From the NCBI GenBank assembly GCA_006384855.1, contig VCJN01001509.1:1-64000 (forward strand): 64,000 nt of DNA, read 5' to 3'. The position numbers and the translations under genes are program-made. A model generated the notes under the pieces. The model did no database searches. It saw nothing but the letters and a program-made list of their open reading frames with translations, and was not told the origin of the DNA. Origin of the DNA: Tetraselmis striata. Lineage: Eukaryota > Chlorophyta > Chlorodendrophyceae > Chlorodendrales > Chlorodendraceae. Shown here in pieces: positions 15,016-41,937 of this stretch; positions within the stretch are counted from its first letter, which is position 1, and each line of letters starts with the position of its first letter.

Positions 15016-15039
15016 TGAATCACCAACATGCGCCGGTCG

Positions 15040-15783: not shown

Positions 15784-16193
15784 GATGTGTTAGAGGTCGT
15801 TGGCAGACAAGGACGAAAACACGAAGCGGGTGGGAAACGGGGCGGGTGTCACCACTCATGTCGAGATGCGCGACGGCGAGGTGCGCTTAACGCAGCCCAC
15901 GGCGCCATGATGAGAGATGCAAGCGAAGATGCGAGTCCGCGTACCGTTGGAGTCGCTCCTGTGAGAGGGACCAAAGGTGGCACACCTTGAGGCTTGGGGG
16001 GTCAGGCTGAGGCTCGCCGTGAGGCGAAGGCTGCGAATCTCCGGCAACGGGCCATAGCGGTCCGCTTCCATGTTGCCCACCGCCCGGTTGCATGGGCCTC
16101 ATGGGCTGAGTCGTGGGTATTGGCGCCTGAGACGCCCTCCTGCCGGAACGCAAGTGCATCTGCGGAGAATGTGGCGCCATGGGGGTCACTAGC

Positions 16194-18249: not shown

Positions 18250-18643
18250 CTGCCCTTGGAAGCCCGGCTATCTCGCTACGCTTTGGCCTAATCCGCGATA
18301 GCGCGCGCGGCACAGCCAATGAGCGGGCGCGTGGCAGTGGGCGGCGAGGCGCGCGGTAGTGGGCGGGCGGAATACATTATTTACATCCGGTTTTGACCGG
18401 GACCGCCTCGGCGGCCGGCACACTGCTCGCGGGTGGAGGCAGCGGCTACAGCGGCCCGGCGGCTGGCCCGCGACCCGAGCGCCCCACCTCCCACCCTGGC
18501 CCCGGCACCACCCCGCCCCCCCAGCCGCCGGCTTGGCGGGCTGCTTGGCCTTCTCGGGCGGGGGCTCAGTGCTACTGCCCTCGTCGACGTCAACTGTCGA
18601 CGACGGGGGTCTAACACAGCAACTGCGAAAGTCAGTATGGTAC

Positions 18644-22563: not shown

Positions 22564-23150
22564 TTTTCCCTTTTTCGCATTGATGCTTGTCGCGGCGGCG
22601 GTGGCTGTGTAATCGAACGAGTGGGAAAACAAACTCGTCTCACCTGCGGCTTCCCAGTGCGGCGTCACCTCGCAGACCTCGAGCTAGCCTAAGGAATCTG
22701 AGTGTCGCGCGGCCAACATTCGTCAAAGACAGCGCCGGCACCACTGCTTTGTCCTCAAACATCAAAAAGTAACGCAGCACGGGGCGGTCAACGCATGTGA
22801 AATTCGAATCCTCTATGCAGTCAAGTCACCCACCCGCCGACTCATTGTACCTTTCAGGGTGGACTCCAGAACCGGCTCGTGGGAGTATGGCATGGACCGT
22901 CGACGGAGGCGTTTTGAACGCCAGTGCCTCTGTTAGATCCCGTGGGGGGGGGGGGGGGGGCTATGGTACCGGGTTCAAGATCTTGGCACGCGTCGCGTCG
23001 GGTACAAACGAGGCAAAATACAGCGAGACGACACCCTCATCTGACACTTGGACACCGTGATGGAGAGTGCTGGCTGGGGGACGAGCAGCCACGATACCTA
23101 TACTGTTTGGCGAGTGCGCGTCAGGTAGACGCAGCCACTTATTTCTAAAT

Positions 23151-23542
23151 TTAACCATTGTGGGGCCGCGTTTGCCAAAGATGTGAATCTCTTACATTTT
23201 CGGGTGTGAGTAGGCCCACGGGGCGTACTGTCCGCAATGAAAAGGGTAGCATAGCGGGGTGGGTGGATTGCGCTAGCTGGTCAACTGGCGCAAAGGCAGA
23301 AGGTGGACTCCCCTCGTGGTGCGGGTGCGTCATGTAGCAGGGCTGTCGCATGCTGTCGCTAGCGCCGCTAGACATCGGGAAGTCCAAGCGGTACACGTAC
23401 TGCGAGTACATGTACTGGTCGCTAGCATTCAAACTACTGTAGAATCTGAACGATACCAGTACCGGTGACAGAATAGCCCGGTGTAATCAAACCTCTATAT
23501 TACCAATATGACCATTTAACCATTGTGGGGCCGCGTTTGCCA
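23151..23542. repeat. Short direct repeats B2 and B1 of the PAT-like element
   Basis: TTAACCATTGTGGGGCCGCG plus TTTGCCA occurs at 23151-23177 (B2, terminal) and 23516-23542 (B1, internal), flanking A2. The order A1...B1-A2-B2 is the PAT signature. Confidence 0.8.
23268..23514. repeat. Split direct repeat A2 of the PAT-like element
   Basis: 247 bp matching 27912-28158 (A1) with few differences, from TTGCGCTAGCTGGTCA to CCAATATGACCA. Confidence 0.85.
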
Positions 23543-24790
23543 TCATGCCGCCCATGGGCGGGCAGCTTGTCGCTGGCGGCCCACCCCAAGGGGTAAGCCA
23601 GCCGAAGAGCTGCCACGATGCCGCACACGGAAGCGCCGTGGGATTGATGTAGTCGAGCACGACGCTGGACAACTGCGCCCAACAGCCAAAGTGCTTGATC
23701 TTCTGCAGCACCACGCCGATGGCGTACGCCGCAGTGGCCGCGCCCTTGCGGAGAAAGTGTGACGTCCACACAAACCCCGGAGGCGGGTGCTCCTCCAACA
23801 TATGTGCCACTAGCTGCAACCAGTCTGTAACGGTGGCCGATGTCCACGATGCCGCCGGCTCGTCGTGGGTCACTGCCTACCGGCCTGCTGGCAGTCCGCG
23901 CTGACCGCAGTAAACTGCGCGTGCGGCATCAAAATAGGGCAGCAGGGCCGCAATCCGGGGCTGCGCGCGCGCCGGAATCTGGCACTGTAACTTACGGTTA
24001 CGGTGCTGCCCGCGTCTACCTTTTCGGTCCCGATGGTACAATAGGATTGTACCATCTGCAGTAACCGTCAAATCGCCCGTCTGGCAGGCTACGCCGGCCT
24101 TGCCACGCGCGTAGAACATATACATGGCAACGACTGCCATCGCGGCGCGAAACAAGAGGATACGAGGAAGCTGGTCACGGGTTCATGTGGGTCCCAACTC
24201 CTCACGCAGGGTCTCCGCCAGCCGCAACGTCCGTGTGATCAACCGGGCGGGCACGTCGGTGCGGACCCCAGGCGGGTCTGGCTCAACTTGCGATGCCGCG
24301 AGGCCCTTTCTCACCTTGCTGATGAGGTCGCCTTGCGCCACCGGCTCCGCGCCGTGGTCGCGGTAGAAACCGTTGATCGCGGAAAGGTAAGGCTGCAGAC
24401 TGGCTGCCTTGACCGTCCCCCGCAAACCCCGCCACGCGATGTAGCGCGCGACGGTTGCCGCCGTGCCACCCAGGGGCGGCACACCCTGCTCAGCGCAGAA
24501 CTGTAGGAATGGGCGGATGGCACTGCCGTACGTACTGGCGGTAGTCTCTGCCCACGCCGACGCGTACAAATGAAGCGCCGTTTCGCCGAGTTGGTCGTTA
24601 CCTAGTACTGAACGCATGTACGGACGCATAGTAGCTGCCCACGGGTTCGTGCCGCTGGTCAGGAGGTCCAACAGATATTTTGCCTGCGGCACGCGTGGCG
24701 CGCGCGCGGGCCTGACGACAGGCGTAGCACCTCGTCGTACCGGGAATAGCGCCAAGGTTGCGCTCACTGATCCACGGCGCAGGTGCAGCC
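23487..24790 (-). pseudogene. PAT-like tyrosine recombinase
   Basis: N-terminal core-binding part in the frame ending at 24183: LTSGTNPWAATMRPYM, then TASTYGSAIRPFLQFCAEQG, then SLQPYLSAINGFYRDHG. After a stop, a middle part (23877-24155) and a C-terminal part (23873-23487) continue: FVWTSHFLRKGAATAAYAIG holds the H-x-x-R box, and KHFGCWAQLSSVVLDYI the catalytic Tyr. The C-terminus is coded across B1 into A2. It replaces integrase as the insertion enzyme. Frame breaks near 24183 and 23877. Confidence 0.75.
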
Positions 24791-24816
24791 ATGACGGTAT
24801 GGCACACGGAAGACAC

Positions 24817-25654
24817 TCACTGCCCAGCGCGGCGCTCCGGGCATATCGCGCCCCGCCCTTCGCCCCGGCCGAAAAAGATCGCGGCGAGGCAGTACCACGC
24901 GCTCCGCCACCGCCATCTCGGTAAGTGCCTGGTGCCACATCTTGCCCTCCCAGCGAGGGGCCACGACGGTAGCGGCCGCGCCGCTCTGGCGCAGCTTCTG
25001 CACAGGTCCGGCAGAAGCGGCCAAGGGGGGTTGCAGTAGTTGGTCTCGCGACGCCACTCCGCATCGGACAGATGCAGGGAGTCCACCGCCTCGCAGCCGG
25101 GGTCCAACCACGCAGCGTTGTAGCGTGGTAGCATCGCGTTCAGGGCTGATGCGAACCGATCGACGGAGTGCGCACCCCACATTGCCTCCAGCTCTGCGAA
25201 CATGACGGGGTCCAATTGCCAGTCGTCGCTGTCGAGGTGTCGGCTCAGTCGATCCGCCCATACGTTCGCGGCGGACCGGATGTAGCGGGCTCTGATGTGT
25301 ACGCCGTTGCTGTCCGGCAGGTACCATAGCTTGCGTAGTTCCGCCATCATCGCCGGAGAGCGGGAGGTGAGGCCAGCAAGGACGCTGCAAACTGCCTAGT
25401 TGTCCTCGTGCAACAACACGCGGCGACCGGCGAGGTGCGGCAAGAAAGACTCCAATGCCAGCCGGACGGCCTTCAGTTCTTTCCAGGTGATGTGCTGGCG
25501 CTCGTCGGCTGCCCCCCAGAGCCCCCGCGCCTCCAGCCTGCCATTCAGCACTGCACCCCAACCGTAGCCGGAGCTGTCGCAGTGCATGTAGGCCGTCTCC
25601 ACAGGGCGGTGGATAGGGCGGCCGTTGGCCTGAGTCGGCACGGCGGTCCACCAC
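24817..25654 (-). pseudogene. PAT-like RNase H and Dam-like methyltransferase domain
   Basis: RNase H: YMHCDSSGYGWGAVL, then ITWKELKAVRLALE, then LLHEDN followed by TAG where Gln is expected (EDNQA), then RYIRSAANVWADRLSR. The methyltransferase-like domain of DIRS-group elements follows: HSVDRFASALNAMLPRYNAA, then ETNYCNPPWPLLPDL, where NPPW is the adenine-methyltransferase catalytic motif. One nonsense codon at about 25399 inactivates the chain. Confidence 0.7.
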
Positions 25655-26730
25655 TTACTGCAGGTCGCGCCGCAGCTGGTGTGTCATGCGCACTCGGCCG
25701 CCCCACTTGGAGCCCACCACGTCGTGGAGCTCCCGCAGGTAGAAGCGCGCGGCCGGGATTGCCAAGAAAAGGTATTGAGCCCGCCCAACGAGCGACTGCA
25801 TCTCTCGCACGGGTAGCCAACGGGCGTCGCGGGCCGCGCGCTGCAGCAATTGCTTGGCTTGGCGCGCAAGCCGCTGCAGTTTGTCCATTGGGGCATAAAA
25901 TAATCCCGTGGCTGTGTCGATGTCCACCCCCAGGTGCTGGCCGTACTTGATCGGCTCCCACAGCCCTTTGGCGGGGTTGCGCAGCAGGCCCATGCTGTCC
26001 AGCAAGTCGGCGACGCGCTGGCGGAGCTCCAGCGCCTCCGGCTCCGGCGAGGCGAACAGCAAGAAATCGTCGACGTATGGTAAGATGCGCGCTCCCCTCC
26101 ACCACCCGCGGCGCAGCCAGCGGCGCGACCGCGGGACATTGCCAGGCGCAGCGGGGGTAGTCGGAGAGCGTAGGTGCTTGACGAACGTCATCGTGAACGT
26201 CGTGTAGTAGTAAGGGCTGAGCGACCAGCCCATGGGAAGGCCGCACAGCCGGTAGAGGGCCCCGCGGATGTTGACCGTGAAGTAGTCGCGGTCGGAGGGC
26301 GCGATGCCCATGGCATAGAAGCCGTCTTGCATGTCAAACGAAAACATGTAGTCCCTTTTCGCGGTCAGGTGTCGGACGCCCATGAGTGTCTCTATCCGTA
26401 GTCGCTTGCGCGCGCGGAAGGTGTTGAGCACGCGGAGGTCGATGATGAAACGCCACTGGTTGTTGCCGGGCTTCGGAAAGAAGAACGCCCGGGACACCCA
26501 CCATGCGCACGACGACTTCTCCCACGCGCCGGCCGCCGTAAAGCGTCTTAGTTCGGCGGTGAGGAACTTGAGTTGGGCAGGGGTTGCGTCGTTGAACGAG
26601 ACGCCTTGGTTGAACCTTGGGGGTGGCCGGTTGTACCGGAAAGGCACGCGTACGCCATCCCGTATCCAGCTCGTCACTTGCGCGCTCGCGCAGATGTCTC
26701 GCCAGTGCCGCCAACTCCGCCTTACACGGT
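25655..26730 (-). pseudogene. PAT-like reverse transcriptase
   Basis: RT motifs in order: QWRFIIDLRVLN, SFDMQDGFYAMGI, GLPMGWSLSPYYY, and the catalytic LPYVDDFLLFA (about residue 369 of the open frame), then KGLWEPIKYGQHLGVDID. The frame ends at TAA 25655 just before the RNase H part; a single extra base there explains the shift. It is DIRS-group in type. The first ~150 codons of the open frame belong to the gag region in the wrong frame and are left out here. Confidence 0.8.
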
Positions 26731-26783
26731 GACGCATATAGTCGGAGTCGGGGCAACAGTTGTCGGCGCGGCGCGCCACACCG

Positions 26784-27807
26784 TCAGTCGCGTGTCTTGT
26801 CGCCGGTGCTGCCGCCGTTCTTGTCGCAGTTCTTGGTGTCCGCCTCGCGGCGTTGCTGCTCCCGCCTCGTCTCGCGCGCCGCCTTGTCCTTTTCCTTCCG
26901 CGCCTTGTCGCGGTCGGTGTCGCGCTCCGCTGCTTGCCTCTTGAAGATCGCTGATGCATGTGCCTTGGCCGCAGCCGCGAGGCCGACCTCGAGGCGCTTG
27001 TCCTCGAGCGCTGCCAAGAGGCCGTCGACGACGTTGGCGGAGCGTTCATGCTCGGCGGTGTCGGAGACTCGGGAGTAGATGAGTCGCTCGGCGACTTGCT
27101 CCTCGGGGGTGAGGGCCTTCTTGGCCTTGAAGCGTCGAAGGTAAGTGAGCCTGACCTCATCCGCGTCGCCCACTGCTTCAAGCGTGCGATGCGCGGCGTC
27201 GAGTAGGTCGAGGGCGTCGACGCGGTCTTGGGTGGGGGTATCGGGCGCGCAAAGCGTACCCAGAGCTGTCTTAGCCGCCGCGTTAGCGGCGGCGCGGTAG
27301 ACGCAATAGCACTAGACGCAATAGCAGGTGGCGGTACTCGTCGCGCGACGCAGTATTGTTGGCCTCAGTGAGATAGCGGTCGGCCTCGTCGTTTTGGGGC
27401 CGCCAGAGGCTCGGGCGTGTGGCGCCCGACGGGCGGGGGGGGGGGGGGGGGGGGCAGTCTTGGTACGCCCGGGGCAAGAGGTCTTCCCAATCCCGAGGGT
27501 CGATGAACACGGCCGCGGCGTCGCGCGCGCCCCCCGTAGCAGCGGCTGTCTGGGCGTCGTGCTCCGGCTCCTTGCCACCCTCGCCGACTTCGTCGTCGTC
27601 CGAGGGAATGTCGCGCTGCTCCTTGTGCTTGTTGTTGTCATGTTCGTGCAAGCGGGTCGATAAAGCGTCCACCTTCAACGCCAGCGCTTGCAGTAACGCA
27701 AGCGTTGTCGTCTCCCGTGTCGTCTCTGTCTGTTCCGCGGGCGTTTCGGCAAAACTGTCGGCTGGCGTTGCCTTCGTAGGGTCTGCCGCCTTCTTGCCGC
27801 TTGCCAT
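26784..27807 (-). pseudogene. PAT-like gag
   Basis: Starts MASGKKAADPTKATPADS, followed by a coiled-coil-like segment (LALKVDALSTRLHEHDN) and an acidic stretch. A poly-Pro block follows, coded by the homopolymer at about 27437-27454. The frame breaks near 27310, where a short direct duplication (ACGCAATAGCA) is present. It resumes as ALTPEEQVAERLIYSRVSD and ends in a Lys/Arg/Glu-rich tail (stop at 26784). Together this forms one gag-like protein of about 340 residues. Confidence 0.6.
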
Positions 27808-27911
27808 CGTAGCGTGCGCAAGTGCCGTGGTGGAAGACTAGTCGTCGAGACCGTCCACTCGTAGAGATATTCACACCTTGCATATCGTCGCGTCGGAGAG
27901 GTGCGACGCCG

Positions 27912-28158
27912 TTGCGCTAGCTGGTCAGCTGGCGCAAAGGCAGAAGGTGGCCTCCCCTCGTGGTGCGGGTGCGTCATGTAGCAGGGCTGTCGCATGCTGT
28001 CGCTAGCGCCGCTGGACATCGGGAAGTCCAAGCGGTACGCGTACTACGAGTACATGTATTGGTCGCTAGCATTCAAACTACTGTAGAATCTGAACGTTAC
28101 CAGTACCGGTGACAGAACAGCCCGGTGTAATCAAACCTCTATATTACCAATATGACCA
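27912..28158. repeat. Split direct repeat A1 of the PAT-like element
   Basis: The 5' terminal repeat of the element (minus orientation); pairs with 23268-23514. Confidence 0.85.
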
Positions 28159-28255
28159 ATAAACAAGTCCGGCGCCGCGCCTAGACGACTTGCGCTCCGC
28201 GCGAGTCGTCTTAATATCATACACATTATATCATTATGTTATTTATGTCGTAGCG

Positions 28256-28369
28256 TCGCGATTGGTCCTATTGCATGACTGCGGCTGATACACAGTGGCC
28301 GCCATGCGCGTACATACGCTGCCGACTGTCTGAAAATACTGCCACGCTGATCACGCGTACGCGATGACA
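28256..28369. repeat. 114-bp repeat, left copy
   Basis: Matches 35475-35588 with two or three differences. On the minus strand it starts TGTCATCGCG. It is flanked on both sides by TGTCGTAGCG (28246-28255 and 28372-28381), which the right copy lacks. It could be a short LTR or an independent short insertion. Confidence 0.75.
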
Positions 28370-28484
28370 ATTGTCGTAGCGTCTCGGGAGAAAAAGGAAA
28401 AACTGTCTTGACAGGGTGAGGGTATGCTCCTATCCCCCCCCCCCCCCCCCCCCCCAGCTGTGGAACACCGTGCCAGCAGCTGGC
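28370..28484. other. 3' end of the methyltransferase element
   Basis: Contains a C run (about 28434-28455), which is poly-G on the coding strand and might serve as a polypurine tract. It lies only 65 bp from the 114-bp repeat. Confidence 0.35.
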
Positions 28485-30275
28485 TCACACGCCTGACTGA
28501 CACGCCTCGCAGATCCACTCCTCGCTTGGGTCAACGTGAATGACTCCCGCTGGGACACATGTCGTGTGCCACGGGTTGCCACACTTGTCAGATACGACCA
28601 TAGGGGCTGCCGCGCTGTCTTGCGTTCGGCCTCACGTCGCCGCGCCCCTGCCTCCTGCGGCCTACGCTGCCTAGCCTTGCTCATGATCTGGACACCCATG
28701 AGCTGGCTTGTCTTGCCACGCCTCCGCTTCAGAAACAGCATCCTGAGCTCATGCAAGGCCGCGCCCTGCAAGTCGAGCTCTGCGGCATCGCGTTCCGACA
28801 TGGCCTTATTCAGGCGCAACTGAGCTGCGTGAGCAGCTGCCTTCTCAGCCTCATCAGTCAGGCTTAGGGTGGCAACCCAGCCATCCCAATTGCGCTGATG
28901 TGCATAGGCCACTGCGATGCGCAGCATGACTGACACTGAGGTGCTGGCACAGACATTGCCAATGGCTTGCAGGTGCTCCCCCTCAGTACGGCCCAACTCG
29001 GTGCGGGTGTAAAGCCGTGGGTGCACATTCAAACACCTCTCCCTGATTTGAGCAGGGGTTGGCACATAGCGAGGCGGGTTGCTGCCTCGCACACGCAGCA
29101 TGCCAGCGCCAGGCTGTCCAGTCGCATCGAGCACCTGCGTCACGGTGTCCGTCCTAGCAGGGAACTTAGGCAGAACCCTCATGGGCTGCCATCCTCGTTG
29201 AGTCCCCTTATAAGTGTGTGCGGCCTATCGCCGGTGGCTAACTGCAGCGCAAGCTTGCCACGCGATTCCTCGTCCACTATCTGGGCCAATGGCACTGGCG
29301 GGGGCCGATGGAACTCCCGCTCCACTGCGTCATAGTAGCTATTAGTGAACATGTTTGTCCACCAACATGCTGTCCGCATAGTAGTGTCTCCACACAGGTA
29401 GGGCCAATAATGCACATTGGGGCGCCCAAACACTTGCCTCAGAAAGTCATAGATAGGCTTGCGTGACTTCTGGGCTGCGGCTACCGTCTGGCGCATCGCG
29501 CACATTCTCAATAATGTATCCGAAATGAGCTGGGGCTGAGGCCCACTCAACAAAGCCTATGCGCCTAGCCATGAGGTACTGCAAGTCCACCAGCATAGCT
29601 GCTACAGGCACGACGGTACCTGTCCGCGAGCTGTTATGCCTAGCTGCATGCCCAGCGGCGATAGATCCTGGCAGGGCGGTTCAAGTGTTACAAGGTCTAC
29701 TTGGCCCATATAATCCAACGCTAACTCAGCGGTGAGCTGCGTGATGTCATGCCCCACAGCATCGCCTAGATCAAAGGCTCGCTTCATGACCTTGTCTGGC
29801 AAGCGCTCCGGCCATAGATCATGCATTAACTGCAACTGCATGCGCAAGTCCTGCCTGCGCGCCTCATTCGCCTCAATGAGCTGCAAGTTCTCAAAGTGGA
29901 CTCCCTCCTCAACCATCCTGAATGACACGGTGCCCATGCCAGAGTAGCCTGATATGGCTCGCACCGCTCCTGCCTTGCCTTCTGCTGCATCAAGAGGAAA
30001 AACATAGCACTTGTTGGGGTCACTGTGCGGCAGCGCTCCGATGGCGTCCAAATCCGCCTGCGTGTAACCGCTCAACGGCAACTGTCTGCCTGTCCGCACT
30101 GCTGCTTGGCGTTGCTCATAGTACGGCGGCACTGGCCCCTCGCCTGCATAGGCGGTAGCGGTTGCGCCGTCACATTCACCGATCCCCATGCAGCATGTGC
30201 CTATCCCATCACCTTGTTCTGTGCTGGTGGAGTGTGTGGCACCAAGAAAATCGAATACCGCACTCTCCCCCCCCC
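28485..30275 (-). pseudogene. Cytosine-5 DNA methyltransferase with C-terminal degenerate PHD finger, frameshifted
   Basis: Motif I: RAISGYSGMGTVSFRMVEEG; motif II: LQLIEANEARR; motif III: AVGHDITQLT; motif IV with the catalytic Cys: LVTLEPPCQDLSPLG (29679-29668 codes PPCQ); motif VI: FGYIIENVRD; a motif VIII-like TTMRTACWWTNMF; motif X: EHLQAIGNVCASTSVSVML. The chain is broken by frame shifts near 29625, 29470, 29180 and 28610. The end reads VSDKCGNPWHTTC...EEWICEACQSGV then TGA, a PHD-like finger in which one zinc Cys is Ser and the first Cys pair is not visible. A C5-MTase transfers methyl from SAM to cytosine; here it would come packaged with gag and protease. Confidence 0.75.
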
Positions 30276-31490
30276 CACCAACACACAGACCACTGGCTGT
30301 GGTGTTGGGACCACTTCGAGATGCAGACTCTCCACAGCGGTGCCCAGAGTCCGGAAAGGCACCACTGCTTGCGGGCCGTGCAGGCCGCGCGCCACGTCCA
30401 GCGGGTAGCATGCGGTGCCATCGCTCAAGATAGTAAGGGATAGCGCTCGCACCACCGACGTGTCCAACAACACATCGGGGAGCGCAAGGTTGTCCAAGAT
30501 CACCCAGCGCGGCCACGGTAGGCTGATCTCCCACGTTGTGCCACGGTTGAAGGTAAGTGGCAGTGGCTCCACAACCATGTCACACTGCGACACACCTGGC
30601 ACGATGCCGCGCATGCGGACGTGGCCAATGTTGGGCTGAATGCCCTGCTCCTTGCACAGTCTCTGGTAGAATGGGCGGCTGATGCCCGCGATGTCACAAC
30701 CAGTGTCCACCAGCGCTGCGCTGATCGGCATGTCGGCTAGGTGCAGCGCCGTGTGCGCCATGTCAATCAGCGCTGTGCCCGGGCGATCAAAGCCGAGCTG
30801 CGCCTTGCGTGTGTAATACTCTGCCTGCTCCGCGCGGCGCGGCACCAAAGCTGCATCATCCCGCGCAAGGTGCTGCCTCGCAGCGAGCGGCAACACGCGT
30901 AGTGTGACCACCTGACCACAAGGGTCGCCAGTCGCGGCAACCGTCGTCGCGGCGGTCGCTGCAGGCGCATCCGCGTCGGTGCTCATGCTGTACGGCTGCG
31001 GCTGCGGCGGCCAAATGGGGGATGGCACATACGGGTCTAGGTGAATGCCCAACACGCTGCGCACGGCATGGCGGAACACGGCACTCATGTCTTGGTATCG
31101 GAAATCAGTTAAAGTCAGCGGTGCTGACGCTAGCACACGCTTCACTGCTTGCGCTAATGCGGCCTCACATGCGACGTGATACTCGTCACGCCGATCAACA
31201 TGGCCGTTCAACACCTCGGACAGTGCCGTTCGCCAACCGGTGGCCGCAGCAGCTGCTGCATTGCCACCTTCACACAACATCTTCATGCTGACGTTGGGGC
31301 AGGTCAGATGCTCTAAGGCATTGCACCATGCATGCAGCAGCTGCTGCTGGCGCACATCGAGCTGACTCATGTCCATGACCTGCTCGTCAGACGGTGGCGG
31401 GCCAAACGACGCAGGCGCGCTGCCCGGCGTGTTGAAGTCCGGCTCAAAACCGCGCGGGCGATGTGCAAGTTGCTCCCGCGTCTCCGACCA
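30201..31490 (-). CDS. Retroviral-type aspartic protease region
   Basis: After the frame change the sequence reads ETREQLAHRPRGFEPDFN and continues to a stop at 30201. The active site is ISAALVDTGCDIAGIS (DTG, residues 224-226 counting from the Met at 31376), followed by flap- and strand-like segments (VRMRGIVPGVSQCDMVVEPL, WVILDNLALPDVLLDTSVV). It would cleave the gag-pol-like polyprotein as a dimer. The frame is lost at a C homopolymer near 30270; before it the natural continuation is into the methyltransferase frame. Confidence 0.7.
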   Translation of the reverse strand, partial: WSETREQLAHRPRGFEPDFNTPGSAPASFGPPPSDEQVMDMSQLDVRQQQLLHAWCNALEHLTCPNVSMKMLCEGGNAAAAAATGWRTALSEVLNGHVDRRDEYHVACEAALAQAVKRVLASAPLTLTDFRYQDMSAVFRHAVRSVLGIHLDPYVPSPIWPPQPQPYSMSTDADAPAATAATTVAATGDPCGQVVTLRVLPLAARQHLARDDAALVPRRAEQAEYYTRKAQLGFDRPGTALIDMAHTALHLADMPISAALVDTGCDIAGISRPFYQRLCKEQGIQPNIGHVRMRGIVPGVSQCDMVVEPLPLTFNRGTTWEISLPWPRWVILDNLALPDVLLDTSVVRALSLTILSDGTACYPLDVARGLHGPQAVVPFRTLGTAVESLHLEVVPTPQPVVCVLVGGGRVRYSIFLVPHTPPAQNKVMG

Positions 31491-32056
31491 TCATGGGCGC
31501 TCCATGCGCGCGCCTTGGTCTTAGCAATTCCTGGGGGCAGCACCCGCGGGCGCCCATGTCCTCGAGTGGCTGCAGGGGCCTGTGGCTGCACGCTGGGCGG
31601 TGCAGCGGCAATGGCGGCGCGTGGCTTGCGCCCCGAGCGCCCCTTGACACCATACAAGAGGGTGCTCAGCCGCGCAGCAACTGCCTCACCACCACAATGG
31701 CTACCCTCTTCCTCAGCGGCATGCTCGACGGCGCGGATGGCCACCATAGTCGTGCCGTCCTCCGTGCCAAGGTAGTAGGCGTCCTCCCACGACTCATGCT
31801 CGGGGCTGCCACCACATGCTGCATGCATGACAGCGCCCTTGTGCTTGGACTGGCGGCTGCGCCCATTGCGCTGCTTTCGGGAGTGCTTGCCCTCGCCATC
31901 TAGCATCCCGTCAGCCTGTGCCTCACCAGCATGGGCTGCGCCAGGGGGCTGCTGATTGTCCAGGTTCGGCTTTTGCAGCTTGGCAAGAAAGGCAGTGCGC
32001 CGCCGCAGGTCCATGGGGCGGTACGTAAGGCGCTTGCGCAGCCGCTGGTTGAGCGG
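31490..32056 (-). CDS. Continuation of gag after in-frame TAG
   Basis: In the same frame as the gag ORF after its TAG: PLNQRLRKRLTYRPMDLRRR, then a basic and Gln-rich spacer, then HESWEDAYYLGTEDGTTMVA. Either the TAG is a mutation of a Gln or other codon, or it is read through as in some retroviruses. A frame change near 31490 leads into the protease ORF. Confidence 0.5.
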
Positions 32057-33622
32057 CTACGGGCACTCCGTGTAAGACGTGTGCCCCGCACCGGCCTTCT
32101 GGCAGTTCCAACACTCGCTCCTGCGCGACTCCTCAGACTGGTATTGCTGCTGCCTACTGGCGCCGCCCCGCCACTGGGGTCCATTGCCTTGGCCAGCATG
32201 GGCATGCGCAGCATGGCTCTCCTCGGGCGACTCATAACCGGCGTGGGTGGCATGTCCCGCCGCCGCCCGCCCCTCACGGGCGTTCTGCATCACCTTGCGG
32301 TCGCGCGCATGTAGCGGGCATGACCGTTGTGCATGGTAGGGGTCAGGGATGTGCAAAGCAGCACACTCCTCACAGCGTGGCCGAAATTGTCCGTTTACAT
32401 TGCGGCCGTCACGCCCCTCTCTAAACTCTACGTCATAGGGTCGGGTACTAGACAAAGCGGCACGCAACATGGTCCTATTGCTGTCGCCTGCCATCTGCGC
32501 AACACGCTCCAGCGCCAGCGCGTCATCTGCCTCGCGCTCGCGCTGCTCTTGCTCGATCTCCTCGACTATGCGCGCCATGTGGCCTATGCGGTCCACACAA
32601 CGGTCGAGAGAGAGCTGACTCAGCGTGCGCCCTGTGTCGAGGTCCAGGCGGTCCTCTACTAGCCTCTGCCTGCGGATGCGCAAGGCGGGCACGGAGGCCC
32701 AAGGCGGCAACACTCGGCTAAGGAAGCGGCGGTTCAGATCCTGCGTCGTGCTGGTCCTGACTTCGGCATGCGCGCGGTGCATCCTCGCGGCAAGCGTCGC
32801 TGGCCGCTCCATGAAGCCGTCGCGCGTAAGGCTGGTCCACAGGCGCTCGTGTACATCCAGCGCGGTGACCTTAGACACTTCTGCCTTGAAGGTGTCCAGC
32901 TGCACCTTGTATGCAGCATCTCGCGATGCTGCATAGATGCGCTCCTCCGCTGCACGTGCTGCCGCAGGCGTCTCAGGGGGTGCATAGGTGACCTCCGAGC
33001 CACCGCTATCACCGCCCTCGTCTCCGTCACGAGCGACGACCTCGCGCCGCCCACTGGCAGCCGCCTGCATGTGGGCCCTCCTGGCCGCCACTTGGCGCTC
33101 TGCCTCCGCACGCCGTATGGGCTCCTCTGCCCGACGCGCGAGCACCGAGGTCTCAATGGCCGCCTTGACGTTGGGGTCCAGCAGGCTGAGATAGTGCTTC
33201 ATCTTATCATACACGTCCTCTGACGTGGGATCGCGCATGCTGCGCACCACCTCCTCCTCGAAGTCCATCTCCCACCACTCAGCGAAGGACTTCTCATTAT
33301 GTTCCGGGCCCACCCAACGTGGGCACACCGGCAGGTCGCGGTGCCGTCCAGCTGCCACCACCATGGGTCCGTCTGCGGCTGCCCAATCAGCCCTCCGGGC
33401 TGTGGAAGACTGCACCATTATGCTGTCCGCGCCATAGAATTGGTTGTCACGCAGAGCACTGCTGGGTGGGGTACGGCGCGGGCTCCGGCCAAGGCCAGAG
33501 GGGGCGTCCTCATCTTCCGCCCCGTAGCGCGCCTCCTCCTCGCCCCCGCGTGTGCGTGCGACAAAGGCATGACGCTCCACTGCCCCTCGCGGCGGCAAGA
33601 TGCGCCGCACGGAATGGGACAT
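32057..33622 (-). CDS. gag-like protein, 521 residues
   Basis: ATG start MSHSVRRILPPRGAVERH. The middle is helical and charged (KSFAEWWEMDFEEEVVRSM, then long Arg/Glu-rich helices around ALERVAQMAGDSN), as in capsid-type gag proteins. Near the C-terminus are a Cys/His-rich stretch (CEECAALHIPDPYHAQRSC) and a zinc-knuckle-like CWNCQKAGAGHTSYTEC (C-x2-C-x6-H-x5-C, longer than the usual C-x2-C-x4-H-x4-C). It ends at TAG 32057-32059. The same frame then stays open for another 210 codons. Confidence 0.65.
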   Translation of the reverse strand: MSHSVRRILPPRGAVERHAFVARTRGGEEEARYGAEDEDAPSGLGRSPRRTPPSSALRDNQFYGADSIMVQSSTARRADWAAADGPMVVAAGRHRDLPVCPRWVGPEHNEKSFAEWWEMDFEEEVVRSMRDPTSEDVYDKMKHYLSLLDPNVKAAIETSVLARRAEEPIRRAEAERQVAARRAHMQAAASGRREVVARDGDEGGDSGGSEVTYAPPETPAAARAAEERIYAASRDAAYKVQLDTFKAEVSKVTALDVHERLWTSLTRDGFMERPATLAARMHRAHAEVRTSTTQDLNRRFLSRVLPPWASVPALRIRRQRLVEDRLDLDTGRTLSQLSLDRCVDRIGHMARIVEEIEQEQREREADDALALERVAQMAGDSNRTMLRAALSSTRPYDVEFREGRDGRNVNGQFRPRCEECAALHIPDPYHAQRSCPLHARDRKVMQNAREGRAAAGHATHAGYESPEESHAAHAHAGQGNGPQWRGGASRQQQYQSEESRRSECWNCQKAGAGHTSYTECP

Positions 33623-35474
33623 GGGCGCTGATCACTGCCTAGACACGATCGGTCTCAGCAGCCACCCCTCCGGGTTCCAGGCTTGCCTCAGTGTCCACCA
33701 ATCCAATCCGATCCAGAGGTACCAGCTGTCGGTGCTACTGTCCGCTACGAACCGATGGCCTAGTGTCACCGATCCGGACGACTGACGGTAGGCCGCCCAC
33801 AGGGTCGAGGCACACTCATGGCAACGTGCCTCGCTGCGCCCCCTCGCCTCTGAAGGCCCAGGGTCCCCTGCAGCTGTCACCTCTATATAGCCTAAGAACT
33901 GCGGACAGCAGCACCCCAAGAGGAACAACCACCAAGGAAGGTAACAGTAACGGTACCCGCGGGATGCAGATGCGTGTGCGTGCCTGCTGCAGCCCCTTCC
34001 GTATGACTGTCTGAGTCCACGTGCCTTATTTAGTACTGGGGCAAGAGAGTGCCCCTAGAGCCACACCGGACTGGCCCAAAGGCCTCCAACGGCGCACGAG
34101 AGTTAAGCTCCCAGCAAGTGTAACCCACACAACGTGTGGCTTGCCTGCCCACTTGCCGTGCGCCGGCCGGTTGCTCTATATGACTGAGGCAGAGGTGAAC
34201 GAGAGTGGTTGCTGGTGTGTGTGGCTGAATGCAACACTACCGCACACGTGCTGTGCAACGGTAGGGTGCGCTGCGACCCCGGCCACCGGCACACCACAGT
34301 TGGGTTGTTCCAAGCCACCAGCAACACTACTTGGGCAATGCCTCACTCACAACCACAGGTACCAGCGCAAACACCGCTATTACTCAGCGGTCCGCGACTC
34401 ACTAGCCACCAAACTTCACAGTGCCTAAGAACAGACTCTAGTCCGGTACATTACCGAGTTTGACAGCTTAATTGTGCTTGACGGCTCCGTGCTGGTCCGA
34501 GAGGTAACTGGTAGATGTGCAGCGAGTTCGCTGCAGACCACCTACTCTCACCTAGCAACCTAAAGCCTTCCGTTGGGGCGCCGATACTCAGCCAAACCCA
34601 ACAAGACTCGGTATTCGCACCTACCTACTCTAGACCTCGTGACCGAGTTTGCCTCAGAGGTGATTCGTAACGACGACGCTATGGCCAATATTCCGGAGCG
34701 CAAGTTTGTGTTTTCTGCTGGGAGGGAAGCGCCGACTTACTGCGCTTAACGCTGTCCGGAAGCCGGGTACGACGTCGCCGATAGTCCATATCGCCTCCTA
34801 CGAATGAGTTTGTGTTTCGCACGAATGTACGGCTGTCTCGCTCGCTCGTCGGTCTAACTCGACTGAGTGGCACGACAAAGCAAGCCCACCCGACACAACT
34901 AGCTCGTTGTGTACACTACGCTCTCGACGCTCTCGTCACGCATGCTCACGATGCGCCATCAGGCATGTGAAAACATGAACACACGAGGGGCACCTCACGA
35001 CAGTCACAATGTCCTTAAAGGTGTTCTCGCAGCAAGAGAGGCGTCCACGCGCAGTCCAAAGGCAGGTCGCGCCTCAGGGAGCGTTCACGAGTCAGCAGAA
35101 AACACAAACTGGAAGCTGCGGGTGGCGCCTTGCTGCTAACATAACTCGCCGGCTACGGGTGCTACTCGCTGCCCTCGGCTCAAGTACTGTCAATAATTAC
35201 GTAATAATATCGTGCATACTACTACGAACGGATGGCTCTCCTGCACCGTAAGGCACGGAAGTGCCAGCCGTATCTTACGTTATCTACGACGGAAAGCACG
35301 GTGGAATACTACTGTGGAATACTAAGAAAAGTACTATGTCTTGGTCCTCACGACGTGTCTTGCTCTTGCTGACGTGGATGATATGCTCGAGCTCCGTCTC
35401 CACACACATTTGGAAGTTCCAGATAAGAGTCAGAGCTTGCGTTGATATCGGACCGCCAGCTAGGCCATGGTGCC
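33623..35474. other. Leader of the methyltransferase element, no gene recognised
   Basis: About 1.85 kb between the right 114-bp repeat and the gag start. Open frames are short and show no RT, RNase H or integrase motif on either strand. Confidence 0.45.
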
Positions 35475-35588
35475 TCGCGATTGGTCCTACTGCATGACTG
35501 CGGCTGATACACAGTGGCCGCCATGCGCGTACATACGCTGCCGACTGTCTGAAAATACTGCCACGCTGATCACGCGTACGCGATGACA
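35475..35588. repeat. 114-bp repeat, right copy
   Basis: Same orientation as 28256-28369, upstream of the gag leader in transcription direction. Confidence 0.75.
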
Positions 35589-35891
35589 TTTATAGATAAT
35601 ATATTATAATGATCCAATATAAATACATAAAATATATATTAACATGTTATAATAAATCAATATAATATTTTGTAATTTAATATACATTTTAATATGATAA
35701 TACATTACTATATAGTATATTAATTACATAGTATATAACTGCATATTGTAAAGCGCATATCGTAGCAGTACTGCAGTGCGAGTACCCGCCTTGATGCTGC
35801 GTATCCATAGCGTAATATTCGCATATTGTGTTTAGCCCTGAGCCATATCCCGTATGGCGATCGTATTTAGCGCGTAAATGAGAACACATGT
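35589..35891. repeat. AT-rich direct repeat, left copy
   Basis: About 300 bp, strongly AT-rich in its first half, then TATCGTAGCAGTACTGCAGTG and a tail ending AATGAGAACACATG. It matches 37136-37441, most clearly in the tail. Confidence 0.65.
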
Positions 35892-36088: not shown

Positions 36089-37136
36089 CTGCCCCTTAAA
36101 GCCCGACTATCTCGCTACGCTCTGGCCTCATCCGCGATAGCGCGCGCGCGGCAGTGCCAATGAGCGGGCGCGCGGCAGTGGGCGGCGAGGCGCGCGGCAG
36201 TGGGCGGGCGGAATAAATTATTTACATCCGGTTTTGACCGGGACCGCCTCGGCGGCCGGCCCGCTGCTCGCGGGTGGCGGCAGCGGCAGCGGCGGCCCGG
36301 CGGCCGGCCCGCCACCCGAGCGCCCCACCGCCCGCCTTGGCCCCGGCACCACCCCGGCCCGCTAGCCGCCGGCTTGGCGGGCTGCTCGGCCTCCTTGGCC
36401 GGGGGCTCCGTGCTACTGCCCTCGTCGACGTCAACTGTCGACGTCGGAGGTCTAACACAACAACTGCGAAAGTCAGTGTGCGTGTTGATTGCTTGTCGAG
36501 GCGGCGGTGGCTGTGTAATCGAACAAGTCGGAAAACAAACGCGACTCACCTGCGGCTTCCTAGTGCGGCGTCACCTCACAGACCTCGAGCTAGCCTATGG
36601 AATCTGAGTGTCGCGCGGCCAGGATTCGTCAAAGACAACGCTCGCATCACTGCCTTGTCCTCACCTGCAGGAGCAACATCAAAAAGTAACCCAGCACGGG
36701 GCGGTCAACGCCTGTGAAATTCGAATCCTCTAAGCAGTCAAGTCACCCACCCGCCGACTCACTGTACCTTTCAGGGTGGACTCCTCTCCCCGGCTCGTGG
36801 GAGTGTGGCATGGACCGTCGACGGGGGCGTTCTGAACGCAAGTGCCCTTGTCAGATCCCGTGGGGGGGGGGGGGGGGCTATGGTACTGGGTTCAAGATCT
36901 TGGCACGCGTCGCGTCGGGTACAAACGAGGTAAAATGCAGCGAGACGACACCCTCATCGGACACTTGGGAACCATGATGGAGGGTGCTGAGGGACGAACA
37001 GCTACGGTATTGTCTGGCGAGTGTGCGTCAGGTAGGCGCAGCCGCTTTCTAAAAGAAACAAGTCCGGCGCCGCGCCTGGACGACTCGCGCTCCGCGCGAG
37101 TCGTCTTAATGTCATACATATTCTATCATTATGTTA
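36089..37136. mobile_element. Element Y, copy B, uninterrupted
   Basis: About 1.05 kb. It provides the empty sites for E1 copy 2 (between GAAAGTCAGT and TTGATTGCTTGTCG, near 36475) and for the PAT-like element (between TTTCTAAA and AAACAAGTCCGG, near 37055). A minus-strand frame of 144 codons (36549-36115) is open here. Confidence 0.7.
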
Positions 37137-37441
37137 TATAACATAAATTAAATATATTAGTGTTCCAATGTAGATATAATATGTATATATATACATATTA
37201 TGATAAATTAATATAAAATTTAATAATTCGATTTACATTTGAATATAATGATATATTTCTATATAGCATGTGAATAATATAGCATATAGCTGTAGTGTAT
37301 TATATAGCGCAGATCGTAGCAGTACCGTAATGCGAGTACCCGGCTTGCTGCGTATCCATAGCGTAATATCCGCATAATTGTGTTCAGCCCTGAGCCATAT
37401 CCCGTATGGCGACCGCGTTTAGCGTGTAAATGAGAACACAT
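37136..37441. repeat. AT-rich direct repeat, right copy
   Basis: Same orientation as 35589-35891. Together they bracket Y copy B. On the minus strand both start TGTTCTCATTTACRCGC, so they may be LTRs of a small element. Confidence 0.6.
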
Positions 37442-37456
37442 GCGATCAGAGTTAAA

Positions 37457-40260
37457 GCAAATGAATTACACGCCAGTCCGGTCATGTGCCGCGGCACAAG
37501 CCAGGTCTACATAACGGTCAAAACCTAGTTGACCGTCAATGTCTCTCACAGTCCTAATCGTTTGCTGCACATGGTGCATGAAATGGTTATCTATCGCATT
37601 CGCGCATGTTGGTGTTTTTGGGGCTGGCACATATTCGGCAGCAGAGCACAGGGCGCACCGGCGTAAGCAACCAGATAGCAAGATCTTAGTCAATACAGGT
37701 TTGCAGCACATCCATGTAGTTCAAACATGATCCCATTTCATACTGCCCGATACATAGTGCCGCTCACAGCATTGCAGCGATGCAGTCCCAGAAACCGCGC
37801 GATCGGAGGTAAAGCAAACGAGTTACACGCCACTTCCAGTCATGTGCCGCGGCACAAGCCGGGTCTACAGAACGGTCAAAACCTAGTTGACCTTCAATGT
37901 CTCTCACAGTCCTGATCCTTTACTGCACATGGCGGTGCATGAAATGGTTATCTATCACATTCGCGCATGTTGGTGTTTTGGGGGCTGGCACATATTCGGC
38001 GGCAGAGCACAGGGCAAGCAACAATACAGCTAGATATTTAGTCAATACAAGCTTGCAGCACATCCATGTAGTTCAAACACGATCCCATTCCATACTGCCC
38101 GATACATAGTGCCGCTCACAGCATTGCAGCGATGCAGTCCCAGAGACCGAGCGATCGGAGGTAAAGCAAGTGAATTACGCGCCAGTTCAGTCATGCGCCG
38201 CGGCACAAGCCGGGTCTACATAACGGTCAAAACCTAGTTGACCTTCAATGTCTCTCACAGTCTTGATCATTTGCTGCGCATGGTGCAGGAAATGATTATC
38301 TATGCATTCGCGCATGTTGGTGGTTTTGAGCTGGCAAAGATTCGGCCGAAGTGCACAGGGCAAGCAACAATACAGCTAAATATTTAGTCAATACAGGTTT
38401 GCACCACATCCATGTAGTTCAAACATGATCCCATTCCATACTGCCCGATGCGTAGTGCCGCTCATAGCATTGCAGCGATGCAGTCCCAGAGACCGCGCGA
38501 TCGGAGGTAAAGCAAGTGAATTACACGCCAGTTCAGTCATGTGCCGCGGCACAAGCCAGGTCTACAGAACGGTCAAAACCTAGTTGACCTTCAATGTCTC
38601 TCACAGTCTTGATCCTTTGCTGCACATGGTGCAGGAAATGGTTATCTATCACATTCGCGCATGTTGGTGTTTTGGGGGCTGGCACATATTCGGCAGTAGA
38701 GCACAGGGCGCACCGGCGTAAGCAACCAGATAGCTAGATCTTTAGTCAATACAAGTTTGCAGCACATCCATGTAGTTCAAACATGATCCCATTCCATACT
38801 GCCCGATGCGTAGTGCCGCTCATAGCATTGCAGCGATGCAGTCCCGGAGACCGAGCGATCATAGGCAAAGCAAGTGAATTACACGCCGGTTCAGTCATGC
38901 GCCGCGGCACAAGCCAGGTCTACATTACGGTCAAAAGCTAGTTGACCGTCAATGTCTCTCACAGTCTTGATCCTTTGCTGCACATGGTGCAGGAAATGAT
39001 TATCTATGCATTCGCGCATGTTGGTGGTTTTGAGCTGGCAAAGATTCGGCCGAAGTTCACAGGGCAAGCAACAATACAGCTAGATATTTAGTCAATACAG
39101 GTTTGCAGCACATCCATGTAGTTCAAACATGATCCCATTCCATACTGCCCGATACATAGTGCTGCTCACAGCATTGCAGCGATGCAGTCCCAGAGACCGA
39201 GCGATCGGAGGTAAAGCAAGTGAATTACACGCCAGTTCAGTCATGCGCCGCGGCACAAGCCGGGTCTACATAACGGTCAGAACCTAGTTGACCTTCAATG
39301 TCTCTCACAGTCTTGATCCTTTTCTGCACATGGTGCAGGAAATGGTTATCTGTCACATTCGCGCATGTTGGTGTTTTTGAGCTGGCAAAGATTCGGCTCA
39401 ATACAGCTGCCCGATGCATAGTGCTGCTCATAGCATTGCAGCGATGCAGTCCCAGAGACCGAGCGATCGGAGGTAATGCAAGTGAATTACGCGCCAGTTC
39501 AGTCATGTGCCGCGGCACAAGCCAGGTCTACAGAACGGTCAAAAGCTAGTTGACCTTCAATGTCTCTCACAGTCTTGATCCTTTGCTGCACATGGCGGTG
39601 CATGAAATGGTTATCTATCGCATTCGCACATGTTGGTGTTTTTGGGGCTGGCACATATTCAGCAGCAGAGCACAGGGCGCACCGGCGTAAGCAACCAGAC
39701 AGCTAGATCTTTAGTCAATACAAGTTTGCAGCACATCCATGTAGTTCAAACATGATCCCATTCCATACTGCCCGATGCATAGTGCCGCTCACATCATTGC
39801 GGCGATGCAGTCCCGGAGACCGAGCGATCATAGGCAAAGCAAATGAATTACACGCCATTTCAGTCATGTGCCGCGGCACAATCCATGTCTATAGAACGGT
39901 CAAAAGCTAGTTGACGTTCAATGTCTCTCACAGTCCTAATCGTTTGCTGCACATGGCGGTGCATGAAATGGTTATCTATCGCATTCGCACATGTTGGTGT
40001 TTTTGGGGCTGGCACATATTCGGCAGCAGAGCACAGGGCGCACCGGCGTAAGCAACCAGATAGCTAGATATTTAGTCAATACAAGTTTGCAGCACATCCA
40101 TGTAATTTAAACATGATCCCATTCCATACTGCCCGATGCATAGTGCCGCTCACAGCATTGCAGCGATGCAGTCCCAGAGACCAAGCGATCATAGGTAAAG
40201 CAAGTGAATTACGCGCCAGTTCAGTTATGTGCCGCGGCACAAGGCAAGTCTATATAAGGG
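37457..40260. repeat. About 355-bp tandem array, about eight units
   Basis: TTACACGCCAGTTCAGTCATG, CAATGTCTCTCACAGTC and CAGCACATCCATGTAGTTCAA-type blocks recur every 345-360 bp; one unit near 39220-39480 is about 100 bp shorter. Copy A of X has only two units. Confidence 0.8.
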
Positions 40261-41937
40261 TGAATCACGTAGATAGGCAAGCTCCGCTCTGCAAGCCCGC
40301 TCGTCGCTCAGGACGGTCCGGACACTTAGGGGGGTGTCGCAGGCCGTGCATCGGCCGTGCGCAGGGGGGTAGGTCGTTGAGTCGCTCAGCGGCGCAGCGC
40401 ACGCATCGCCAAGAACCAAACATAATGCACATGCACACAGCAACATATATGCACACACCATAGATCACATAGGGGGTCGACATATATTCTGACCCGCAAA
40501 AAGTATGATATGGTTCTGCACTGCTGGATTCTGAAGTTTGACTAGGGTGGGTGCCGGACCTGGTCCGGGGATCACGTTGACAACGAGGGGAGGAGGGTCG
40601 CCGGTAGGCAGAAAGTCGAGTGCGCGCTGTGACTCGCCCGCGCTCACCTGACAAGCTTCGGCCGTGCTCCGCCTGGATGATGGCGAAAACCACCGTAGCG
40701 GCAGGCTTTAGTGTCCTCGAGTCGTTGTGCCGGGCCTTGAGGGACCGAACCGTGTATGGTCGCCCCACGAGCGGCGGGCGTGGGCTGGGTGGTGATGGCC
40801 AATTGACTTTTTCGGGCGCGTCGCGTCGGCATACATTTATGCGGCGAGGGCTACTAATGTGCAGATACCGCTACCCTACAGGTAGCCGTGGGCAGGCGTC
40901 TAGCCCTCCTTCCCGCCCTCAGGAATACGGCGCTTGGAGTTGCGACGCCCCATGGCACAACATACTTGGCGCCGGCGGCTCGCAGCGTGTGGGGGTGGGT
41001 AGGAGCTACTCATTTGCGCTGCTGCGATGGTTAACTGCCCGCCCGCACTTGCAATAAATCGGTTTGAGCCTTAGGCTGCATTTCATTTTCGGCCGTAACC
41101 GCAAATAATCGTACGGATACGCGGTACGAATTTACGGTTGCGGCTCGCGAGTAGTCGTAAACGACGCTTAACACGGAGTTGTATTATTGAGCCGTAACCG
41201 TAAACTGACGGATTTGCGGCTCGAGGATTTGCGGCTGGCCTCGCTGGTCGCAAATATCGCAATATTTCCGACCGACCTAAATATGGCTCACTATGCCGTA
41301 AATCGATGTAATACTTTACGCAGAGTATACATATTCAGCGCAATGTACATGCCGGCCGCAAAGGGTCGTAGGGGCCAGGCGGGCCCTGCTTGCTGCTCGG
41401 CCCGGCACCAGCCCGGGCGCCAGGGCGTGCTGATGCTAGGCCCGTTTGAACGTTTGAACTCACAGGACTGAGGGAGTGCGGTCAAACGTCACTGAACTGG
41501 CTCATTTGCCAGTCGCCCGCCCACATCGTGCCGTGTTGGGTGCTCATCAGGCTACAACATTCCCAAGCGACTGCTCGCGATGCCCCCCCCCCCTCCCCGC
41601 CCGCGCCGCCGCGGCCGCAAGCCCCGCTTCCAGGCGCTACGGGCATGAATGACGACGACTTCTCGGCGGACGAGGAGAACGAAGAGCAAGTTGGGCCTGG
41701 AGGTGGGTTGGCTGACCGCGCCGTGCAGGGTAACAACGAGAGCACCGAGACATCGAGAACGATCAGGAGGATGAGGATGAGGACGAGGACGGCGGCAACG
41801 AGGACGAAAACGGCGTTTACCCAAGGAGGCACGATTTACCAAAGAATGTCAGCTCGCTTACATTGGAGGCTAAGACGAGAACCACAGGCTTGGCCTGGGT
41901 GTCTCCTAGCGCAGAAAGATGGCTGTGGGTGGGTGGG

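What the first reader, a model, noticed from the sequence alone, without database searches (positions are those of the whole stretch)
28256..35588. gag-protease-C5 DNA methyltransferase-PHD retroelement without RT or integrase
Seen: gag with Cys knuckle, DTG protease, then C5-MTase motifs I (SGYSGMG), IV (PPCQ), VI (ENV) and X (AIGNV), then a PHD-like end, all on one strand between 114-bp repeats. Known: cytosine methyltransferases have been captured by retrotransposons in some algae and dinoflagellates. Inferred: here a polyprotein would pack a methyltransferase with gag and be mobilised by another element's RT, possibly methylating its own or host DNA. The order and the lack of RT/IN make it unusual.
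Basis: partly seen in the sequence, partly recalled or inferred. Interest (0 to 1): 0.9.

Follow-up and report, generated by a model that had tools for sequence, protein, structure and literature searches.

The report
Algal retroelement carrying DNA methyltransferase, RT-deleted
This green-alga genome carries many jumping genes that have picked up a DNA-methylating enzyme, and the one flagged here belongs to a small branch that lost its own copying and inserting enzymes and so presumably borrows them from its complete relatives.

Summary
On the minus strand at 28246-35588 lies a broken retroelement with gag, a DTG protease, a C5-type DNA methyltransferase (MTase) and a PHD-like end, without RT or integrase. 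The host is the alga of gene set Tetstr1.

The same genome holds complete Ty3/Gypsy relatives, gag-PR-MTase-RT-RNaseH-IN-PHD; one was read in full (C2425, 2970-aa frame). In 44 of 67 distant MTase loci the RT-RH-IN block follows. So this is a deletion derivative: 4 of 4 checkable copies share one MTase-to-PHD junction, the PHD relic out of frame. It is still a multi-copy family (6 MTase copies at 92% or more), one with an open 1753-aa gag-PR-MTase frame. The 114-bp repeats are truncated ~868-bp repeats in a split A1-B1-A2-B2 layout with 4-bp target duplications.

Closest known: KnitGypsy-Dnmt3. My paper searches showed no such element described from Tetraselmis, but one review lumps DAM- and DCM-bearing elements as present in green algae. 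In passing: 33 MTase places adjoin Copia-type protease-integrase. Activity is untested.

The parts
28246..35588 (-). whole retroelement copy (7343 bp), 5' end at 35588
   Evidence: termini TGTC...GACA and 4-bp duplication read; repeats; empty-site paralogue
28242..28245 (.). target-site duplication TTTA, left
   Evidence: same length of duplication in other copies
35589..35592 (.). target-site duplication TTTA, right
35472..35588 (-). A1, the first 117 bp of the 5' terminal repeat that are shared with A2 (whole A is about 868 bp in other copies, i.e. to about 34721 here)
28256..28369 (-). A2, truncated 3' copy of A
28246..28255 (-). B2, last bases of the B repeat (..CGCTACGACA) at the 3' end
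28372..28433 (-). B1 with TTTTTCCTTTTTCTCCC stretch, just inside A2 (AT between them at 28370-28371)
32057..33631 (-). gag frame (524 aa) with Cys/His knuckles near its end; ends in an in-frame stop that the C2722 copy lacks
30300..32056 (-). linker and DTG aspartic protease region (DTG at about 30710)
28800..30279 (-). C5-type MTase region, broken by frame changes; motifs I, IV, VI, VIII-like, X
28494..28607 (-). PHD-finger relic, out of frame with the MTase, first Cys pair missing
23149..28158 (-). neighbouring PAT/DIRS-type tyrosine-recombinase retroelement (RT, RNase H, Dam-like, YR); a separate element

Best explanation
A broken copy of a non-autonomous Ty3/Gypsy-derived retroelement family of a Tetraselmis alga. 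Shown: elements of the order gag-PR-MTase-RT-RNaseH-IN-PHD are present in the genome and homologous to it; the copies that could be checked share one junction from the MTase linker into the middle of the PHD, as a single ancestral deletion would leave; copies of the shortened form sit in several places with 4-bp target duplications. Inferred: its RNA is packaged in Gag made by itself or its kin, is reverse-transcribed and inserted by RT and integrase supplied in trans by complete relatives whose ends are alike (TGTCA..GCG / ..CGACA), and the retained MTase, if made, would act inside the particle or nucleus on new cDNA.
For: Complete relative C2425: 2970-aa frame (gag, PR-MTase, RT-RH-IN-PHD; Pfam RVT_1 63.8, RT_RNaseH 103.8, H2C2 62.7, rve 52.3 bits above cut-off, PHD 19.3 below its cut-off 24). 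The RT-RH-IN piece gives 57 rows (52 of 2232 candidates scored, so a lower bound); it lies downstream on the same strand within 6 kb in 44 of 67 distant MTase loci, median gap 1501 nt. PHD relics of the close family 45-48% identical to that Pol tail. Same 53-nt MTase-to-PHD spacing in 4 of 4 copies with both anchors (window, C2722, C2666, C224); a fifth, C31, showed only the PHD anchor. Six MTase copies at 92% or more, window included; 17 terminal-repeat places, two of them the window's own. Exact 4-bp duplications in 6 of 8 family copies with both ends visible (window, seven others) and in 5 of 6 complete relatives. Gag dN/dS 0.27-0.42 in 6 pairs of four copies, 0.27-0.63 in 14 pairs of six.
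Against: No transcript, protein or transposition data. Gag of the complete family is only 25-27% identical, so the direct parent is not the C2425 family itself but more likely a 50-64% relative (C1531-like), whose full length I could not read (the fetch missed the element). 23 of the 67 distant MTase loci had no RT match in the capped list. In the short family the MTase is not clearly under selection: 2 of 10 pairs reach P of about 0.05, one pair has dN/dS 1.07, one 3.92 and one no synonymous change. Two of 8 close copies and 1 of 6 complete ones lack an exact duplication.
Confidence: 0.86

Rival explanations
1. A specialised element that never had RT/IN: gag, protease, MTase and PHD were assembled as a polyprotein to pack a methyltransferase.
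For: The order is real and multi-copy; one copy has a 1753-aa gag-PR-MTase frame.
Against: Homologous complete elements have RT-RH-IN between MTase and PHD; the PHD relic is out of frame and lacks its first Cys pair; relatives with other deletions exist.
Confidence: 0.04
2. A DIRS/PAT-type element mobilised by a tyrosine recombinase, because its repeats are split (A1-B1-A2-B2) and a YR element sits next door.
For: Split repeats in the window copy, its family and the complete relatives; neighbour 23149-28158 is a YR element with split repeats.
Against: Exact 4-bp duplications in 6 of 8 and 5 of 6 copies; the complete relative encodes a DDE integrase; the neighbour's termini are different.
Confidence: 0.04
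3. A host methyltransferase gene or gene piece inserted between two unrelated elements.
For: MTase is distant from the Pfam profile and the copy is broken.
Against: The same fusion at several loci, in long open frames (1753 aa C2722, 1281 aa C2666, 2970 aa C2425).
Confidence: 0.02
4. Not exclusive of the best explanation: the MTase in the short family is a passenger; only gag and the termini matter for its spread in trans, and the MTase is decaying.
For: MTase changes are not significantly constrained in 8 of 10 pairs, while gag is in 6 of 6.
Against: Two copies keep long frames through PR-MTase (C2722, C2666); dN/dS is 0.40-0.69 in 7 of the 10 pairs; numbers of changes are small.
Confidence: 0.45

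Closest known systems
KnitGypsy-Dnmt3 of Klebsormidium nitens (de Mendoza et al. 2018, PMC5890265; parts 1-4 of 7 read, plus passages; figures not held)
   Same: C5-MTase in the Pol polyprotein of a Gypsy element; repeats laid out as in DIRS while the domains are Gypsy (Fig. 4 legend)
   Different: Host is a chlorophyte (recalled), not a charophyte; MTase class not placed in a tree here; PHD tail and RT-lacking derivatives were not seen in what I read ('PHD' and 'protease' have 0 occurrences in its main text)
SymbioDIRS-Dnmt3 and SymbioLINE-Dnmt of Symbiodinium (same paper)
   Same: Retrotransposon-borne C5-MTases, reported there as under purifying selection
   Different: DIRS (tyrosine recombinase) and LINE elements, not elements with DDE integrase
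TR-GAG type non-autonomous plant LTR retrotransposons (recalled; seen only in a search listing)
   Same: gag kept, RT/IN absent, mobilised in trans
   Different: Here protease and MTase are kept as well, and a deletion scar (PHD relic) is visible

Membership tests
Ty3/Gypsy (Metaviridae) LTR retrotransposon | RT-RNaseH-IN encoded, by the window element itself | tested here: not met
   no RT/RH/IN found in 28246-35588
Ty3/Gypsy (Metaviridae) LTR retrotransposon | PR-RT-RNaseH-IN order, in the complete relative | tested here: met
   C2425 read in full; others only by position of matches
Ty3/Gypsy (Metaviridae) LTR retrotransposon | short fixed target duplication from DDE integrase | tested here: met
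   4 bp exact in 6 of 8 close copies (window, seven others) and 5 of 6 complete relatives
Ty3/Gypsy (Metaviridae) LTR retrotransposon | two identical terminal repeats | tested here: not met
   repeats are split A1-B1-A2-B2 with variable A2-B2 joints
Ty3/Gypsy (Metaviridae) LTR retrotransposon | tRNA primer site after the 5' repeat | not tested
   only looked at by eye
KnitGypsy-Dnmt3-like | MTase inside Gypsy Pol plus DIRS-like repeat layout | tested here: met
   complete relatives; layout in the window copy
KnitGypsy-Dnmt3-like | MTase of the Dnmt3 clade | not tested
   no eukaryotic DNMT reference set was obtained; motif resemblance only recalled
DIRS/PAT tyrosine-recombinase retrotransposon | split direct repeats | tested here: met
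DIRS/PAT tyrosine-recombinase retrotransposon | tyrosine recombinase encoded, no target duplication | tested here: not met
   integrase H2C2 + rve in C2425; duplications present
C5 cytosine methyltransferase (PF00145) | Pfam gathering score | tested here: not met
   15.9 bits joined window frames, 15.8 bits C2722 and 14.7 bits C2425, cut-off 22
C5 cytosine methyltransferase (PF00145) | motifs I, IV (PPC), VI (ENV), X (IGN) in order; profile similarity | tested here: met
   alignment, invariant motifs, phrog_363, hhalign (motif names recalled)
C5 cytosine methyltransferase (PF00145) | methylates cytosine | not testable with these tools
   needs an assay
PHD finger | full Cys4-His-Cys3 set in the reading frame | tested here: not met
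   window relic lacks the first Cys pair and is out of frame; the Pol tail of C2425 shows the full set in its sequence but scores 19.3 bits, cut-off 24

The most novel reading that the evidence does not exclude
In this Tetraselmis one lineage of C5-methyltransferases has been taken up by two different LTR superfamilies, Ty3/Gypsy (between PR and RT) and Ty1/Copia (before PR), kept there by selection, and even retained in an RT-less gag-PR-MTase branch, so that particle-borne DNA methylation is a general, shareable part of the life cycle of its retroelements.
Probability: 0.3. Interest if true: 0.8.

Novelty: new variant of a known kind. Interest (0 to 1): 0.55.

Why it matters
Retrotransposons with cytosine methyltransferases were described from dinoflagellates and a charophyte (PMC5890265); what the enzyme does for the element is open. 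This genome offers many long-frame copies, two LTR superfamilies and RT-less derivatives, a natural comparison of which parts are kept when an element becomes dependent on others. In the complete family the MTase is under purifying selection (dN/dS 0.13-0.38, P < 0.005 in 6 of 6 pairs of four copies); in the RT-less branch gag is, but the MTase is not clearly so.

Tried and rejected
I first read the split repeats as a sign of a DIRS/PAT element moved by a tyrosine recombinase (note); the duplications and the integrase of the relatives overturned that. I read B1-A followed by leader sequence as tandem elements; it is the longer 3' repeat. The RT inside the C31 copy looked like an own RT; it belongs to a nested Gypsy with 348-bp repeats (99.7%), a CTCAT duplication and a 99.4% match to window 58189-63791. 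RT-like matches at C179 (24-34%) lie on the strand opposite to the family's copy there. Self-methylation mark: CpG observed/expected 0.87-1.04 in these elements, 0.94 for the rest of the window, 1.13 in the DIRS neighbour, and 0.48 in the window Gypsy 59260-61530, which shows no MTase; CpG transition excess 1.3-2.0 in four comparisons against 0.0, 0.8, 2.0 and 2.3 in four control repeat pairs: no support. PDB search with one sequence and with a profile: 0 matches. Viral and prokaryotic contig collections: 0 relatives. The fetch of the C1531 3' end missed the element. Structure prediction never ran. No MTase tree: no eukaryotic reference set.

Papers: PMC5890265 parts 1-4 of 7 plus passages; PMC6338049 passages only; all others only in search listings. 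Against novelty: PMC6338049 says that DAM- and DCM-encoding elements of the Gypsy and DIRS clades, taken together, occur among others in green algae. That I found no description for Tetraselmis rests on searches of that library only.

Rows dropped before counts: of the 117 rows (30-39% identity, E 3.8e-12 or better) went into; 6 close rows, 16 mid rows and 28 weaker rows did not.
Full report
What is there. The window lies on contig C1220 of a 224-Mb assembly. A gene model of the set Tetstr1, TSEL_017173 (P0004), matches the window at 98.8-100% in four pieces and even joins pieces of this element with the neighbouring one. That Tetstr1 is Tetraselmis striata, a chlorophyte, is recalled. On the minus strand, 35588 down to 28246, are a gag frame of 524 aa, a DTG protease region, MTase motifs in order, and a PHD-like tail. 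The copy is broken: three frames are used, with one in-frame stop and five frame changes within gag-PR-MTase. RT, RNase H and integrase were sought by Pfam in its larger frames and by comparison with a relative's RT-RH-IN; none was found inside 28246-35588 (the one match of that piece in the window is at 59260-61530).

Is the MTase real? Pfam alone would not say so (15.9 bits, cut-off 22). But PHROG 363 'DNA methyltransferase' matches a 521-aa stretch of the C2722 copy with 28.7 bits, E 1.4e-6, and the C2425 MTase with 20.2 bits, E 5e-4. A profile of three retro-MTases aligns to a profile of Dcm and five phage C5-MTases over motifs I to IV at E 4.4e-5, probability 69. Between the two families, 44% identical, the invariant residues include PPCQD, IENV, WWTN and AIGNVCA.TSVSVM. 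The meaning of the motifs is recalled knowledge.

A family, not a freak. In the same genome the MTase N-half has 117 rows (150 of 209 candidates scored): 6 at 92-100% (window included), 16 rows at 48-78% (a mid class at 10 loci held plus pieces), and 67 rows at 30-39% with E of 4e-12 or better; 28 weaker rows were left aside. Gag has 54 rows, the terminal repeat 17. The copy on C2722 has an uninterrupted 1753-aa gag-PR-MTase frame.

The complete relatives. Eight of the distant rows lie in frames of 2934-2970 aa. I read one (C2425) in three pieces: gag, PR-MTase, RT-RNaseH-IN-PHD. Pfam gives RVT_1 63.8, RT_RNaseH 103.8, Integrase_H2C2 62.7, rve 52.3 and PHD 19.3 bits, the last below its cut-off 24. 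Its RT-RH-IN piece has 57 rows (52 of 2232 candidates scored, a capped list). Of the 67 MTase rows, 44 have it downstream on the same strand within 6 kb, median gap 1501 nt; 23 do not; of the 57 RT rows, 46 have an MTase upstream. So gag-PR-MTase-RT-RH-IN-PHD is a common element plan in this genome.

Deletion series. Among 10 loci of the 50-64% class held (L039-L048), 2 show RT right after the MTase linker (C1531, C746), 4 show the IN C-terminal part and what follows straight after it (C2029, C706, C2553, C553), and 4 show neither within the 1.5 kb held on each side. In the window's family, the linker anchor is followed after exactly 53 nt by the PHD relic in 4 of 4 copies with both anchors. 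The relic is in another frame, and its first Cys pair is gone. One event in an ancestor explains this.

Ends and insertion. In the complete family a 1064-bp repeat A (99.4% identical in C2425) begins TGTCACAGCG. At the 3' end comes B1 (about 62 bp with CATTTCTCTTTTTCC), AT, A2, then B2, ending CTGCGACA. Exact 4-bp duplications flank 5 of the 6 copies with both ends visible (C1872, C1905, C198, C1657, C916; not C2425); for a seventh, C2330, the pieces fetched did not show the ends. The window's family has the same plan: A about 868 bp, B about 62 bp, ends TGTCATCGCG and GCTACGACA, exact duplications in 6 of 8 copies with both ends visible (window, C2722, C2666, C2188, C212, C1376; not C1966, and 3 of 4 bases in the solo copy on C31). 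A paralogous repeat at 36485-37442 shows the site without the element and without the neighbour. How a DDE-integrase element comes to have DIRS-like split repeats is not known to me. De Mendoza et al. note the same layout in KnitGypsy-Dnmt3 (figure legend).

Selection. The MTase of the complete family gives dN/dS 0.13-0.38 with P from 4e-3 to 6e-7 in 6 of 6 pairs of four copies. In the RT-less family gag gives 0.27-0.42, P 0.012 or less in 6 of 6 pairs; its MTase reaches P of about 0.05 or less in only 2 of 10 pairs, with 0.40-0.69 in seven, 1.07 and 3.92 in two, and no synonymous change in one (wider set of pairs). Pairs share copies and are not independent.

Mechanism. Shown: homology, shared junction, integrase-type duplications, several copies. 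Inferred: trans-mobilisation by complete elements through similar end sequences; own Gag. Not shown: expression, packaging, methylation. CpG statistics give no support for self-methylation.

Wider context, followed only partly. PF00145 itself has 123 rows (123 of 337 candidates scored), all above cut-off; by coordinates none falls in the close, mid or 67-row classes above. At C1197, in one 2299-aa frame, the PF00145 match (47.6 bits) runs without a gap into a 495-aa stretch with Copia-type domains: Pol_BBD 43.7, gag_pre-integrs 32.6, rve 30.8 bits (cut-off 32.6). That its first ~155 residues are the MTase C-half is my reading by eye. The stretch has 91 rows (86 of 730 candidates scored; several rows can belong to one element), and 33 of the 123 PF00145 rows lie directly upstream of one. 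The RT of these elements was not read. A 43-residue local match (37%, E 6e-4 for the single comparison) around the WTN motif links Copia and Gypsy MTases weakly. De Mendoza et al. state that Copia elements of Symbiodinium lack a DNMT.

Verdict. Confirmed observation, partly right interpretation: an RT-deleted branch of a lineage of methyltransferase-bearing Gypsy elements in a green alga; new variant of a known kind.

Noticed in passing
23149-28158, minus: PAT/DIRS-type retroelement (RT, RNase H, weak Dam-like N6A MTase, tyrosine recombinase) with split repeats: 247-bp A at 27912-28158 and 23268-23514, 29-bp B at 23514-23542 and 23149-23177; about 85 bp from the finding in the same repeat copy.
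   Followed up: partly
58189-63791: Ty3/Gypsy element (RT-RH-IN match at 59260-61530), 99.4% identical to one nested in the C31 copy of the finding's family; its core is CpG-poor (0.48).
   Followed up: partly
G000 C1197:6301-8046 (L080) and 32 more PF00145 rows: Copia-type protease/integrase stretches directly behind a C5-MTase match, at C1197 in one 2299-aa frame.
   Followed up: partly
G000 C1993, C776, C1647, C2337, C355, C1455: Six near-full PF00145 matches in 325-aa open frames (144-151 bits), stand-alone MTases, perhaps viral insertions.
   Followed up: no
G000, 25 PF00145 rows matching profile 45-116, e.g. C1471, C2111, C1014: A further class of MTases in open frames of 385-2162 aa, not next to the Copia piece; element type unknown.
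   Followed up: no
37442-40261 and 12583-22074: Long tandem/satellite-like repeats and a duplicated block in the window.
   Followed up: no
L061-L073, L022-L031: The A2-B2 joint varies between copies of both MTase-Gypsy families although most 4-bp duplications are exact; mechanism unexplained.
   Followed up: partly
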